Source: Theionarchaea archaeon
GTDB taxonomy: Archaea; Methanobacteriota_B; Thermococci; Methanofastidiosales; SZ-28-30
Direction: 5' to 3'
Length of the DNA: 64,000 nt
Assembly (NCBI GenBank): GCA_018992685.1
Contig: JACVGT010000013.1
Span: forward strand, 60,228-124,227
The position numbers and the translations under genes are program-made. Under the pieces are notes generated by a model. The model ran no database searches and had not been told where the DNA came from. It saw nothing but the letters and a program-made list of their open reading frames with translations. This document shows, piece by piece, positions 1-4,867 of the stretch (within the stretch, counting starts at the first letter, position 1; the number at the start of each line of letters is the position of its first letter).

Positions 1-627
1 CAACAGGTTTCAAGACAGAATGTAATTTCTGCTATTGTTGATCCAGTTCTCTTTCTGAAATTCCTGCGGATGATTCAATCCAACAGCGGAGTGGCTGACA
101 TTCGTCAATTGTGGCCTGATTTCTCCTTGGTAATGACGACAGTAAACACAAGGCCTTTTGAGAACGTGCTTCAATCTCTTCTGGGTCATGTGGAGTTCAG
201 GAGGCTATTCTGTACTGATGAGGTTGTCGTAGCCGTCCAGCTGGATGAAAAAGGTGTGGTGCCCTTGCTTGACCACTGCTATCTTGAGTTCATTCCTTTG
301 AAGCAGTGGAGAGATATGGAACTTGAAGGAGGAACCTACAGGGAATACGGATTTGACATTGAGACTATCGACACTGCTGTTTCAGGAGAAGAATATGTTT
401 TAGTCGTTACTACATCTGGGCTGTACCGGTATATCTCTGGAGACATTGTCACTATGGTTGATAGTCTGCACATGGAACCAACTGGGTTCATTGACGAATG
501 GGCAGTTCTTCCTGAACTCGCGCAGCAAATCGTACTACTGAGGGAAGTGGCACGAGACACATCTCGGACAGAACATCAGCTGGTGGCTGTGGAATCTGAA
601 CCCATGAGATTTCTGTTCAAAATCTGA
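1..627 (+). CDS. GH3-family-like acyl-adenylating enzyme, partial (open at the left edge, possibly frameshifted at its 3' end)
   Basis: Frame is open from base 1. Motifs YLEFIPL and EYVLVVTTSGLYRYISGDIV resemble the GH3 signature. Stop at 625-627. Confidence 0.6.
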   Translation, partial: QQVSRQNVISAIVDPVLFLKFLRMIQSNSGVADIRQLWPDFSLVMTTVNTRPFENVLQSLLGHVEFRRLFCTDEVVVAVQLDEKGVVPLLDHCYLEFIPLKQWRDMELEGGTYREYGFDIETIDTAVSGEEYVLVVTTSGLYRYISGDIVTMVDSLHMEPTGFIDEWAVLPELAQQIVLLREVARDTSRTEHQLVAVESEPMRFLFKI

Positions 628-922
628 ACCTGGTAGGAGTACGAACCTCGGAGTGTGACATGCAAGGGGAAGGGGACTGGTTCCATGAGAGACTGTACGG
701 TTCCCGTGAATATGGACACTTTGTGACTGATAGAATCCTCGAAAGAATCCTGTGGTCAATCCCACGATACATGGACGGTTCAACTTCTGGCTCATGCATT
801 CTCTTTTTCCACAAGATCTGAAGAGAGTTTCATGAATATCGGCTAGTCCGTACCCCTACCTCCACTAGTTCTTGTGTTCTATGTACAATCTCAGTGAAAG
901 CAATCTGTTCAAAAAAGGAATG

Positions 923-996
923 AAAGAGTGGGATTGAGAACAAGACGAAGGAGGTGAAATCCATGGAAGTGGTAACTTGTTTTCTTCCCACTCTTT
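923..996 (+). ncRNA. Hairpin element copy 1 (SD+ATG in the loop)
   Basis: 923-933 AAAGAGTGGGA pairs with 986-996 TCCCACTCTTT; 936-944 pairs with 976-984 (one G-U). 44 nt are identical to copy 2. Confidence 0.55.
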
Positions 997-1182
997 GGAG
1001 TTGTTACTCCGCATATTCTTTGTCATGTCCCTTTTTAAACTTTTGCAGTATTCGATACCCGTCACATCGTACTGATTTGTGTAGTTTTTACTCTAATCAG
1101 GAGGGAGCACAAAATTACCATCCAGAAAAGTGCAACTAGTATTCTTTTATCTGGAAAACATTCGTGAGAAGAAGGATTGAGA

Positions 1183-1251
1183 AGAGTGGGATTAAATAAA
1201 CAAGACGAAGGAGGTGAAATCCATGGAAGTGGTAACTTGTTTACCCACTCT
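1183..1251 (+). ncRNA. Hairpin element copy 2
   Basis: 1183-1190 AGAGTGGG pairs with 1244-1251; 1197-1204 TAAACAAG pairs with 1236-1243 CTTGTTTA. Same loop sequence as copy 1. Confidence 0.55.
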
Positions 1252-1493
1252 CCTCAGTGTTTAACTACAATGGCACATTAGTGCCACTCCTTTTTAAGTC
1301 TTTGTAATGCTAATGTAATCAAATTTTCGGAATTAAAAAATATGACCTATTTTATGGTTCCAAGTGCACATTATTTCTCAATTAGACTTTTTATTTAGAT
1401 AACTCTATCTCAAAGCGATTTCCCTATTCCTGATTCGCATATTGATCTGTGCAGGCTAATTCATTCCTGACCAGTACGTGAGATTTACGCATT

Positions 1494-2060
1494 CTATTCC
1501 TGGACAAAGTGCCATTCACACCATACATCTCCTGAATGCTCGTCAGGGGGACAGCGCACGCAGACACACGTGATATGAGGGTTGATTTCTCTTACAAAAT
1601 TGGAGAGGTAGTTGTATCTCACCTGTTTGCAGGGGAACTCTGGAAATCCTTTCTTTAACCGAGTTAACTGTGTCTTGCAATTGAGGATCCTCAGAATGCC
1701 TGTACCATTTTCCACGGTGATGATTTTCTCCTGTTGATCAAGTGCCCAGCTCGTGGTCTGCAGAGCTCTCATGAGAGTCTCAACAGAAGGGTCTTGCAGG
1801 TTCAAGATACGCTTGAGGGCTTTTGCTTCAAGAGTTCCCATGGCATTCCACACTTCGGCATCAATTTCTGCAGCAGCCTCTGTCCCAAACCGGTTCTCAA
1901 TACCCAGAAAGTACAACCCATCTACTCTCCAGATGTTCCTGTTATTGAACATCATAATCTCAATGAGCTTATCCCTAGGCAATGCTTCCAACATGTCTCT
2001 GTCTTCGTCACTGATGTACGACATTGAGTCACCGAATCTGGCTTCACTCTTCACCATATA
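1494..2060 (-). CDS. DUF6125-like protein
   Basis: ORF 1494..2132 with likely internal start (MVKSEARF...). DGLYFLGIENRFG...DAEVWNAMG and C-terminal DVWCEWHF resemble DUF6125. Confidence 0.55.
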   Translation of the reverse strand, partial: YMVKSEARFGDSMSYISDEDRDMLEALPRDKLIEIMMFNNRNIWRVDGLYFLGIENRFGTEAAAEIDAEVWNAMGTLEAKALKRILNLQDPSVETLMRALQTTSWALDQQEKIITVENGTGILRILNCKTQLTRLKKGFPEFPCKQVRYNYLSNFVREINPHITCVCVRCPPDEHSGDVWCEWHFVQE

Positions 2061-2106
2061 AGTGTTACCCTCCAAACCAGAGTATGAAGGTCGCTCAAAG
2101 AGCCAC

Positions 2107-3447
2107 TCACACCCCCCCACAGGCTGTGGCAAGGGTTCTCCATTGTGGAAACCTCTTTGGGTTTTTTGGATATCGACTGTAAACAGCCCTTAGGATACCC
2201 ATCTTGCCGAGAGCACAGGCCAATTTGAAGAGGAGGGAAGGGGTTTTTGCTGCATTAGCGGCTGTGGTAAGGATGTCAGTCAACGTAAAGGAGGGTTCTT
2301 TTTCCTCCAGCTGAGACAAGACTTCATCAGTGATGACATTCTGCAACAAGGATTGGAGTTCTTTGCTGGTAAGAGACACCATGAAGTCTCTTAAAGGCAG
2401 TGATGATCCAAGAAGCGCACCGTATCTCTGCATGAAATCATAGTTGTACTTCCACAATACCTCCAGAGAGGTGTCTTTGCTGTGGATGGCCTCTGCTGCC
2501 GTTGTAGCTGCCATGTGGCCTGCAGTGAAGGCAGGTGCTATTCCTTCTCCTGTCAAGGGATTCGTGTGCCTGGCAGCATCACCACAGGCCAAGAGACCTG
2601 GAGCCACCATGGAAGGAAGAGAACCTCCAAGGGGGAGAGCACCATAGCCTGCTTGGGTTTTCTCCTTGATTTTGAATCGTGTGTGTTCGTGGAGCGCCTG
2701 AGCCACTGCCTTTCTGAAATGGGTACTGCGCTGTTCCATCCCTCCAGCACCCACGTTCAATTCATAGGTTCCCTTGGGAAAGAACCAGAAATACCCTGAA
2801 GGCACGAAGGAATTGTCAAAAACGATGGTTGCGTATTCCTGAGATATTGCCTCTTCCAGGATGATGTTCTCCTTATATCCCAATCCGATACGTGATGGGC
2901 TGCCGCGCCCACGTCTGAGCTCCCTACTGAGGACAGAGAAAACCCCACTACAATCCATGGTCAATGTCCCAAGGTAGGACGCATCATGAGTCTTAACACC
3001 ATGTACTTCATTTTTCCCAACAGACCCCCGTACGACTCCTTGGTGAAGTTCTGCTCCTCTTCTGAGAAGCTCCTTTACCATGGTCTGCCCAAACTGCCAT
3101 CTGTCTATAGTGCATAGAGGGTCGGTCACCCGAACGATGCCATGGTCACCGTCCATAAGTCCAGAAAAGGTGCAGACTTGCAGGCCTTTCAAAGGATAAT
3201 GATCAACAGAAATCTGAAATTCATTCTTGAGCCATTTCACGATCCTCATGGGCATGAGTTCTCCACAAATCTTTCTGCCGACAAATTCTCTCCCTTTACG
3301 TTCTATGATACAGATGGTGAGATCCTCTCTCAGTGCTGTTAGGCCTGCAGCTGCTCCTGCAATTCCGCAGCCAACAATAACGAGATCATAGGGAGCAATC
3401 GTCATATCACTCATGATTAAGGAATTGTTGTTTAAGAATCTTATCAT
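2107..3447 (-). CDS. Geranylgeranyl reductase-family FAD-dependent oxidoreductase
   Basis: VIVGCGIAGAAAGL Rossmann motif, FVGRKICGELMP, CGDAARHTNPLTGEGI. Confidence 0.8.
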   Translation of the reverse strand: MIRFLNNNSLIMSDMTIAPYDLVIVGCGIAGAAAGLTALREDLTICIIERKGREFVGRKICGELMPMRIVKWLKNEFQISVDHYPLKGLQVCTFSGLMDGDHGIVRVTDPLCTIDRWQFGQTMVKELLRRGAELHQGVVRGSVGKNEVHGVKTHDASYLGTLTMDCSGVFSVLSRELRRGRGSPSRIGLGYKENIILEEAISQEYATIVFDNSFVPSGYFWFFPKGTYELNVGAGGMEQRSTHFRKAVAQALHEHTRFKIKEKTQAGYGALPLGGSLPSMVAPGLLACGDAARHTNPLTGEGIAPAFTAGHMAATTAAEAIHSKDTSLEVLWKYNYDFMQRYGALLGSSLPLRDFMVSLTSKELQSLLQNVITDEVLSQLEEKEPSFTLTDILTTAANAAKTPSLLFKLACALGKMGILRAVYSRYPKNPKRFPQWRTLATACGGV

Positions 3448-3605
3448 TTAGTAATCATGGCTTGTAGAATCTTTAACTTAATTGACGGTTCTCTCTAAAT
3501 TCTTCATTCGATGCAAAAAGCGCTACACGAAAGTTCTAAGATCGTTGTAAACTTTTCACGACATTTTGATTGAGGAATGTTTTCAGCCTGCAAAAGCTCT
3601 CACCC

Positions 3606-3717
3606 CGCTAGATCATTCTCCCATCCGGATTGTCAGTCCGTGGGCTGCAGAAACCGGCGGAGGATGTTGAGAGGCCGAACCTCGAGACTCGCTTTCTGAG
3701 CATCATCCAATGCTCAG
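3606..3717. promoter_or_regulatory. Structured intergenic region with hairpins and, on the minus strand, an FMN-riboswitch-3'-like motif
   Basis: Perfect hairpin 3696-3703/3710-3717. Minus strand reads GCCCACGGACUGACAAUCCGGAUGGGAGAAUGAUC. Confidence 0.35.
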
Positions 3718-3772
3718 TGCGCAGTGCAAAAGATTTATTACAGGATGCGTAATAGACTGTGGAGGTTACAGT

Positions 3773-4867
3773 ATGAGATCAGAAATTCAGGCCCTGGCCG
3801 GAACCTATGATGCTGATAACATTCACATCGGTGTGCTGGGTTCCCATTCTGCCCTTGAGGTTGGATATGGAGCCCGAGAAGAAGGATTTAAAACTGTAGT
3901 GATCTGTCAGAAAGGGAGAGAAAAGACCTACACCCAGCGGTTCAGATCTCTGTTTGACGAAGTGATTCTCCTGGAGAAATTCTCCCACATTTCGTCTCCT
4001 AATATTGTGGAGAAGCTCAGAACGTTGAATACCATCTTTGTTCCCAACAGGTCATTCTCAGTGTACTGCGGATATGACAATATTGAGACTAGGTTTGAGG
4101 TTCCTCTGTTTGGAGCACGAACAATGCTTCGAGCTGAGGAAAGAGATGTGCCCAAGAACCAGTACTATCTCATGGAAAAGGCAGGAGTCCCATTTCCGAA
4201 AATAATAAGAAGTGCTGAACACATTGACAGATTAGTCATGGTAAAGCTGCCCCATGCTGTAAGAAAGGTGGAGCGGGGATTTTTCACGTGTTCATCATTC
4301 AAAGAATACACACACAGATCTGAGGACCTCATCAAAAAAGGGTTGATCACGAGAAGTGATCTAGAAAATGCAGTCATTGAGGAGTTCGTGGTGGGAGCTC
4401 TTTTCAACCTGGATTATTTCTATTCTCCGCTGCAGGATGATGTGGAGTTCATGGGGGCTGACCAGAGAATTGAAACAGACATTGAAGGGATACTCCACAT
4501 GACAGCTGAAGAACAGAGAGCTTTTTCCCAGACGCCCACCGTCATCCCCATTGGACATCGAGGATTAACAGTGCGGGAGTCGCAGCTGGATACCGTATTT
4601 GAACTGGGTGAAAAATTCGCTGAGACCTGCAAACAGGAATATCCCCCTGGAATATTCGGATGTTTCGCATTGCAGGGAGTTTTCAACAGAGATTTGAAGT
4701 TTTATACCTTTGATGTGTCATTGCGAGTGCCTGGGGCGCCGATCTTGTTGACCAGCTCTCCCTATACGGTATATAAGTACGGGATACAGATGAGTGTGGG
4801 ACGGCGTATTGCCATGGAAATCCGGGAGGCGGTGAATGCGGGGCGGTTGTCAGACTGTGTCACATGA
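3773..4867 (+). CDS. PurP-family ATP-grasp protein (FAICAR synthetase-like)
   Basis: Collinear with PurP: IGVLGSHSALEV..GAREEGFKTV, FVPNRSFSVYCGYDNIE, IEEFVVGALFNLDYFYSPL, GCFALQGV. N-terminus trimmed from the tracked ORF. Confidence 0.75.
   Translation: MRSEIQALAGTYDADNIHIGVLGSHSALEVGYGAREEGFKTVVICQKGREKTYTQRFRSLFDEVILLEKFSHISSPNIVEKLRTLNTIFVPNRSFSVYCGYDNIETRFEVPLFGARTMLRAEERDVPKNQYYLMEKAGVPFPKIIRSAEHIDRLVMVKLPHAVRKVERGFFTCSSFKEYTHRSEDLIKKGLITRSDLENAVIEEFVVGALFNLDYFYSPLQDDVEFMGADQRIETDIEGILHMTAEEQRAFSQTPTVIPIGHRGLTVRESQLDTVFELGEKFAETCKQEYPPGIFGCFALQGVFNRDLKFYTFDVSLRVPGAPILLTSSPYTVYKYGIQMSVGRRIAMEIREAVNAGRLSDCVT

What the first reader, a model, noticed from the sequence alone, without database searches (positions are those of the whole stretch)
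923..1251. Duplicated intergenic hairpin with a compensatory base-pair change and SD+ATG in its loop
Two elements 260 bp apart share 44 identical nt (939-982 vs 1199-1242): AACAAGACGAAGGAGGTGAAATCCATGGAAGTGGTAACTTGTTT. Both sit in stems GAGTGGG...CCCACTC. Where they differ, pairing is kept: A937-U983 becomes U1197-A1243, and G938-U982 becomes A1198-U1242. The shared loop carries GGAGGTG followed by ATG. Both copies could start a peptide (MEVVTCFLPTL... and MEVVTCLPTLLSV*), and the 3' indel between them is 3 nt. I do not recognise a known RNA family. It could be a new structured RNA, a paired cis-regulator or a leader-peptide family.
Basis: partly seen in the sequence, partly recalled or inferred. 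Interest (0 to 1): 0.8.

Follow-up and report, generated by a model that had tools for sequence, protein, structure and literature searches.

The report
Archaeal hairpin RNAs with anti-ribosome-binding loops
A pair of conserved hairpins in an uncultured archaeon (Theionarchaea) is most likely made from the strand opposite to the one first proposed, as small RNAs whose loop is complementary to an unusually strong ribosome-binding site carried mainly by the cell's secreted protein-digesting enzymes, which would let them switch those enzymes off; no expression data exist yet.

Summary
The duplicated hairpin is real. It has four copies in this Theionarchaea genome and two syntenic copies in its only held congener; none was found elsewhere or in Rfam. 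The ~43-nt centre is nearly invariant. The outer stems differ completely between copies yet still pair (flank-shuffle p 0.001-0.009).

A promoter model trained on the genome's own tRNA genes places tRNA-grade BRE/TATA boxes on the minus strand upstream of both window copies (16.2 and 13.6 bits) and none on plus. Cross-species conservation runs from those boxes to the pyrimidine-rich 3' ends.

Read on minus, the 'SD+ATG' becomes a 31-nt loop containing UUUCACCUCCUU, an anti-ribosome-binding-site. Its complement, AAGGAGGUGAAA, is a rare ribosome-binding site here: AGGAGGTGA precedes 6 of 738 other genes but 5 of 7 exported C25/S8 peptidase genes. Genome-wide, 8 of 13 AGGAGGTGAAA gene starts are exported peptidases from three unrelated families.

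Best reading: a multicopy sRNA family that blocks ribosome binding on exported-peptidase mRNAs, analogous to but not homologous with alpha-proteobacterial alpha-r14 ('cuckoo') sRNAs. Transcription and targeting are inferred from sequence only.

The parts
905..1010 (-). Predicted small RNA, copy 1 (5' end about 1009, 3' end about 905-911)
   Evidence: Promoter model position; conserved block 917-1052 identical in G001; fold -29.2 kcal/mol. Transcription itself is inferred.
1031..1046 (-). BRE/TATA promoter GCAAAAGTTTAAAAAG of copy 1
   Evidence: 16.2 bits with a matrix trained on 30 tRNA genes of this genome; reached by 5.5e-5 of window positions; identical in G001
997..1010 (-). Small 5' hairpin GGAGUAACAACUCC at the predicted RNA start
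   Evidence: Fold
923..996 (-). Main hairpin of copy 1: outer stem 996-986/933-923, inner stem 981-976/944-939, 31-nt loop 975-945
   Evidence: Folds
948..959 (-).
   Evidence: Sequence; mostly unpaired in the ensemble
905..922 (-). Pyrimidine-rich 3' tail UUUCAUUCCUUUUUUGAA, possible terminator
   Evidence: Sequence; tRNA genes of this genome end in similar T-rich tails
1160..1269 (-). Predicted small RNA, copy 2 (5' end about 1268)
   Evidence: Promoter model; 1164-1270 is 106/107 identical in G001 while the TATA-TSS spacer 1271-1289 is 13/19
1290..1305 (-). BRE/TATA promoter ACAAAGACTTAAAAAG of copy 2
   Evidence: 13.6 bits, reached by 1.1e-4 of window positions; identical in G001
1178..1256 (-). 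Main hairpin of copy 2: outer stem 1256-1244/1190-1178, inner stem 1243-1236/1204-1197, loop 1235-1205
   Evidence: Folds
1208..1219 (-). Anti-RBS seed UUUCACCUCCUU of copy 2
   Evidence: Sequence

Best explanation
The two elements are independent minus-strand small-RNA genes, each with its own BRE/TATA promoter and giving an RNA of about 100-110 nt that ends in a pyrimidine-rich tail. Each folds into one long hairpin. The stem is free to vary and presents an almost invariant 31-nt loop (UUACCACUUCCAUGGAUUUCACCUCCUUCGU). The loop's UUUCACCUCCUU pairs with AAGGAGGUGAAA, the extended Shine-Dalgarno region of target mRNAs, and blocks the 30S subunit. The best target set is the exported peptidases (C25, S8, M14), which share this rare ribosome-binding site. 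Shown from sequence: copies, conservation, stem pairing, promoter-grade motifs on minus, loop-RBS complementarity and its concentration on exported peptidases. Inferred: transcription, loop accessibility in the cell, pairing with mRNAs, and the direction of the effect (repression). Why the rest of the loop is conserved is open.
For: Strand: a BRE/TATA matrix from 30 tRNA genes of the same genome finds its two best sites of window 601-1520 on minus, upstream of each hairpin, at the distance that places the RNA start at the conserved edge. The C11 copy also has a 13.0-bit minus site about 140 nt upstream. Conservation with G001 starts at the TATA box and stops at the pyrimidine-rich 3' end, and in copy 2 the TATA-start spacer is free to vary. 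Structure: outer arms differ entirely between the c1/c2 and C11 copies but still pair. Target logic: AGGAGGTGA precedes 6 of 738 other genes but 5 of 7 C25/S8 peptidase genes in 864 kb (Fisher 5e-9). AGGAGGTGAAA occurs 18 times in the genome (control 3). Thirteen sites are gene starts, 8 of them exported peptidases of three unrelated families; of the other five sites, three are copies of this hairpin, one is a hairpin-like site at C36 and one is inside a coding frame. The next two letters after GGAGGTGA are AA, as the loop needs rather than the UC that would extend 16S pairing, in 14/21 peptidases vs 1/10 other strong-SD genes (p 0.004). Precedent: archaeal sRNA154 and sRNA41 of Methanosarcina mazei mask ribosome-binding sites (PMC5867862); alpha-r14 sRNAs combine an ultraconserved anti-SD loop with divergent stems (PMC10746234).
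Against: There is no expression data. Outside the 12-nt seed the loop is not more complementary to peptidase starts than shuffled versions (mean energy p = 0.19), so target specificity rests on a seed that any anti-SD loop would share in part. Peptidase paralogs share ancestry, so the p values overstate independence, and the peptidase link was noticed after looking at target hits. Two of the copy differences (G938.U982; U.G closing the CCAU-RUGG mini-hairpin) are wobble pairs only on plus, although one stem change (copy 2 G.U in the outer stem) is a wobble only on minus. The C1 copy is cut by a contig end, and the C11 promoter is farther from its hairpin. Only two related genomes are available.
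Confidence: 0.6

Rival explanations
1. A minus-strand hairpin RNA that is a general anti-SD regulator or ribosome-tail mimic (UGGAU-UU-CACCUCCU resembles the 16S 3' end GGAUCACCUCCU), acting on any strong-SD mRNA or titrating an rRNA-processing factor, without a dedicated peptidase regulon.
For: Same strand and structure evidence. The loop beyond the seed shows no extra fit to peptidases, and a small set of other strong-SD genes fits it slightly better than shuffles (p 0.013). The UGGAU...CACCUCCU similarity to the 16S tail is visible in the sequence (16S end from general knowledge; no 16S was found in this MAG).
Against: The loop pairs with AAA after GGAGGUG, which peptidase sites carry and the 16S complement does not. 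Strong SDs are so rare here that even a general anti-SD RNA would hit mainly peptidases.
Confidence: 0.2
2. Plus-strand small mRNA or leader: the hairpin hides a perfect SD and ATG and regulates a short peptide (MEVVTC...), possibly a type I toxin-like gene with the minus RNA as its cis-antisense.
For: A strong SD (AAGGAGGTGA; AAGGAGGTAA in C11) with 7-nt spacing to ATG in every copy; ordinary genes here use the similar GGAGGTGAATCCATG; two wobble pairs favour plus.
Against: No plus promoter near copies 1 and 2. Upstream plus-strand DNA is only 49% identical in G001. ORF length and sequence are not conserved after six codons (58, 30, 13 and 15 codons).
Confidence: 0.12
3. DNA-level element: paired terminal hairpins of a small non-autonomous transposon (IS200/IS605-like) or a protein-binding repeat.
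For: Same-orientation hairpins 260 bp apart; C1 and C11 copies sit in a duplicated region of about 1 kb.
Against: Only four copies; stems of unrelated sequence; the C1/C11 duplication extends far beyond the hairpin and includes an HTH gene; window copies are at the same place in both species, with fully conserved promoter motifs.
Confidence: 0.05

Closest known systems
alpha-r14 / 'cuckoo' sRNA family (e.g. Sinorhizobium NfeR1)
   Same: An ultraconserved anti-SD motif in unpaired hairpin regions while stem sequences differ strongly; pairing to translation initiation regions silences mRNAs (PMC10746234). Multicopy, as the family is known to be (general knowledge).
   Different: Alphaproteobacteria; three anti-SD hairpins per RNA with CCUCCUCCC. 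Here one hairpin per RNA with UUUCACCUCCUU, archaeal promoters, no Rfam match. Convergent resemblance, not homology.
Methanosarcina mazei sRNA154 and sRNA41
   Same: Archaeal intergenic sRNAs with anti-RBS segments that mask ribosome-binding sites (PMC5867862).
   Different: No Rfam match here; several loops or activities, nitrogen-related targets; not a multicopy family with a fixed loop.
Methanosarcina mazei sRNA162
   Same: Archaeal sRNA masking a ribosome-binding site in trans; lineage-restricted (PMC3510493).
   Different: Uses a 39-nt linker between stem loops, not an apical loop; targets a transcription-factor mRNA.

Membership tests
alpha-r14 / cuckoo sRNA | Anti-SD motif conserved in unpaired loop while stems diverge | tested here: met
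alpha-r14 / cuckoo sRNA | CCUCCUCCC motif | tested here: not met
   Loop has UUUCACCUCCUU
alpha-r14 / cuckoo sRNA | Three anti-SD hairpins in one transcript | tested here: not met
   One anti-SD hairpin per predicted transcript; copies 1 and 2 have separate promoters
Any Rfam family | Match to a covariance model | tested here: not met
   No hit at E<=1 in window 1-4000, none at gathering in the window or in L006/L053; only 5S rRNA and a tRNA elsewhere in L011
Archaeal anti-RBS sRNA (functional class) | Own promoter, intergenic | tested here: met
   Promoter-grade motif on minus for both window copies; transcription not testable
Archaeal anti-RBS sRNA (functional class) | Loop complementary to ribosome-binding sites of mRNAs | tested here: met
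Archaeal anti-RBS sRNA (functional class) | Represses target translation | not testable with these tools
   Needs experiment
Leader peptide / regulated small ORF (plus strand) | Conserved peptide | tested here: not met
   Only six codons shared; length not conserved
Leader peptide / regulated small ORF (plus strand) | Promoter upstream on plus | tested here: not met
   None above 3 bits in window 601-1520
IS200/IS605-type ends or MITE | Multiple dispersed copies with element boundaries | tested here: inconclusive
   Four copies; the C1/C11 duplication is larger than the hairpin; no empty site available

The most novel reading that the evidence does not exclude
An archaeal regulon in which secreted peptidases of three unrelated families have converged on one extended Shine-Dalgarno sequence so that a multicopy family of hairpin sRNAs can shut all of them off at once by loop-RBS pairing.
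Probability: 0.4. Interest if true: 0.8.

Novelty: new variant of a known kind. Interest (0 to 1): 0.62.

Why it matters
Theionarchaea are uncultured, and I found no work on how they control their exported peptidases. If right, this gives a concrete RNA-level switch with a named sequence on both partners. It would also be an independent appearance, in Archaea, of the 'fixed anti-SD loop on variable stems' design known from alphaproteobacteria. The same motif (AAGGAGGUGAAA) could be used to look for RBS-defined regulons in other archaea.

Tried and rejected
Plus-strand structured core with a GNRA-capped mini-hairpin (CCAU-GGAA-RUGG): considered first, dropped after promoter and conservation tests favoured minus. 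A wider homologue search with a covariance model of the core over 115 genomes of the class gave only weak matches outside the genus (best E 0.006), read as chance. Exact-pattern scans: viral contigs none; GTDB contigs only SZ_28-30 and a Butyrivibrio gene start unrelated in context. Extended loop-mRNA complementarity as proof of peptidase specificity: tested with seed-kept shuffles and not supported. AGGAGGTGAAA sites C8:94068 (G000) and G001 C18:4317 lie inside a conserved coding frame, not an RNA hairpin. The C36 hairpin UCGAUA-UGGACUUUCACCUCC-UAUCGA upstream of an HTH paralog has no good promoter and is left as a possible distant member. The other new-looking TGGA..TTYACCTCC sites include ordinary gene starts. 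In one search one Fisher table miscounted a peptidase; the corrected value is.

Full report
OBSERVATION. The two elements are present as described, including both compensatory or wobble changes. The window belongs to a 3.03-Mb Theionarchaea MAG: its only held congener, G001, has a 101,118-bp contig of the same length and content as Theionarchaea SZ_28-30. The 43-nt core AACAAGWCKAAGGAGGTRAAATCCATGGAARTGGTAACTTGTT has four copies in this genome: copies 1 and 2 in the window, one on contig C11, and one at the very end of C1. The C11 copy has wholly different outer arms that still pair. With the 31-nt loop held open, real flanks fold better than shuffled flanks in all three complete copies (p 0.001, 0.003, 0.009). 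G001 keeps copies 1 and 2 at the same place. No other relatives were found in 115 genomes of the class, in viral contigs or in GTDB contigs, and there was no Rfam family match.

WHICH STRAND. I trained a 16-position BRE/TATA matrix on the upstream regions of 30 tRNA genes of the same genome; the motif lies at about -37/-38 from the mature 5' end. In window 601-1520 its two best hits are both on the minus strand: 1046-1031 GCAAAAGTTTAAAAAG (16.2 bits; 5.5e-5 of all window positions reach this) and 1305-1290 ACAAAGACTTAAAAAG (13.6 bits; 1.1e-4). They score like the tRNA promoters themselves (mostly 12-19 bits). They place RNA starts near 1009 and 1268. No plus-strand site in that stretch reaches 3 bits. 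The C11 copy also has a 13.0-bit minus-strand site, about 140 nt from its hairpin; the best plus site there scores 7.6. Conservation agrees. Between the two species, 917-1052 is 136/136 identical and drops to 49% just beyond 917. For copy 2 the RNA part 1164-1270 is 106/107, the TATA box 17/17, and the spacer between them only 13/19. This is the pattern of promoter, spacer and RNA read from right to left. On minus each RNA ends in a pyrimidine-rich tail (UUUCAUUCCUUUUUU; UUCUCAAUCCUUCUUCUC; C11 UUGAUUUCUUUCCUUUUAUAG), like several tRNA genes here. G.U evidence is split: two pairs are wobble only on plus, one only on minus.

WHAT THE LOOP SAYS. This is the design of an antisense loop against a ribosome-binding site. 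The plus-strand ORFs do not behave like genes: they share six codons and then run 58 codons (this genome) or 30 (congener) for copy 1, 13 for copy 2 and 15 for C11.

TARGETS. A search for the loop motif's complement first turned up gene starts of an S8 and a C25 exported peptidase. I then examined the C25 and S8 genes of the genus. Most carry GGAGGTGA, commonly as AGGAGGTGAAA plus a short spacer. This is unusual here. In 864 kb (745 called genes), AGGAGGTGA precedes 5 of 7 C25/S8 genes but 6 of 738 others (Fisher 5e-9). AGGAGGTGAAA occurs 18 times in the genome against 3 for the reversed control. Thirteen sites are gene starts (three of them doubtful: 31- and 45-codon ORFs and one inside a longer frame), and 8 of the 13 are exported peptidases: four C25, three S8, one M14. 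Of the other five sites, three are this hairpin family read on plus, one is a hairpin-like site on C36 and one is inside a coding frame. After GGAGGTGA the next two letters are AA in 14/21 peptidases but 1/10 other strong-SD genes (p 0.004), so these sites match the loop's UUUCACC better than the 16S tail's AUCACC. Outside the seed the loop does not fit peptidase starts better than shuffles (p 0.19), so the conservation of the rest of the loop (including the self-complementary UCCAUGGA, which could allow loop-loop dimers) is unexplained.

MECHANISM. Most likely each RNA presents its loop to mRNAs with an AAGGAGGUGAAA leader and blocks 30S binding. Sequence-level steps are shown; transcription, pairing and repression are inferred. 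Because paralogs share leaders and the link was found after inspection, the statistics support an association and not a proven regulon.

KNOWN RELATIVES. Functionally it resembles alpha-r14/'cuckoo' sRNAs, which have an ultraconserved anti-SD motif in loops on divergent stems and silence mRNAs at the initiation region (PMC10746234), and the archaeal sRNAs 154, 41 and 162 of Methanosarcina, which mask ribosome-binding sites (PMC5867862, PMC3510493). It is not filed as a member of any of them: the alpha-r14 motif and three-hairpin layout were tested and not met, and there is no Rfam match. I rate it a new variant of a known kind.

Noticed in passing
L012:702-1748 (G000:C1) and 20+ other loci: An expanded family of HTH regulators (about 24 matches in this genome, 19 in the congener, none in the other 21 relatives searched; IclR-like HTH). 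The C1 and C11 hairpin copies lie about 640 nt upstream of members, on the same strand as the predicted RNA; the C11 neighbour is broken.
   Followed up: partly
L011:7553-7749 (G000:C11): 5S rRNA and a tRNA lie just upstream of the duplicated ~1-kb region that carries the C11 hairpin; no 16S rRNA was found in this MAG.
   Followed up: no
G000:C36:824-838 (L053, L128): Short hairpin UCGAUA-UGGACUUUCACCUCC-UAUCGA upstream of another HTH paralog: same loop motif on an unrelated stem, no good promoter; possibly a distant member.
   Followed up: partly
G000:C1:38915 and G001:C91:24851: A methyltransferase gene with the same AGGAGGTGAAA ribosome-binding site as the peptidases, conserved in both species; a possible non-peptidase target.
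   Followed up: no
L012:1875-4958 (G000:C1): A CHAT-domain / AAA-type NTPase / TPR protein (1028 aa) next to the HTH gene, reminiscent of STAND-type defence proteins.
   Followed up: no
window 1497-2132 (-): A DUF6125 gene directly following a geranylgeranyl-reductase-like gene (2110-3447, -), with short overlap of the longest ORFs; the order is kept in the congener.
   Followed up: no
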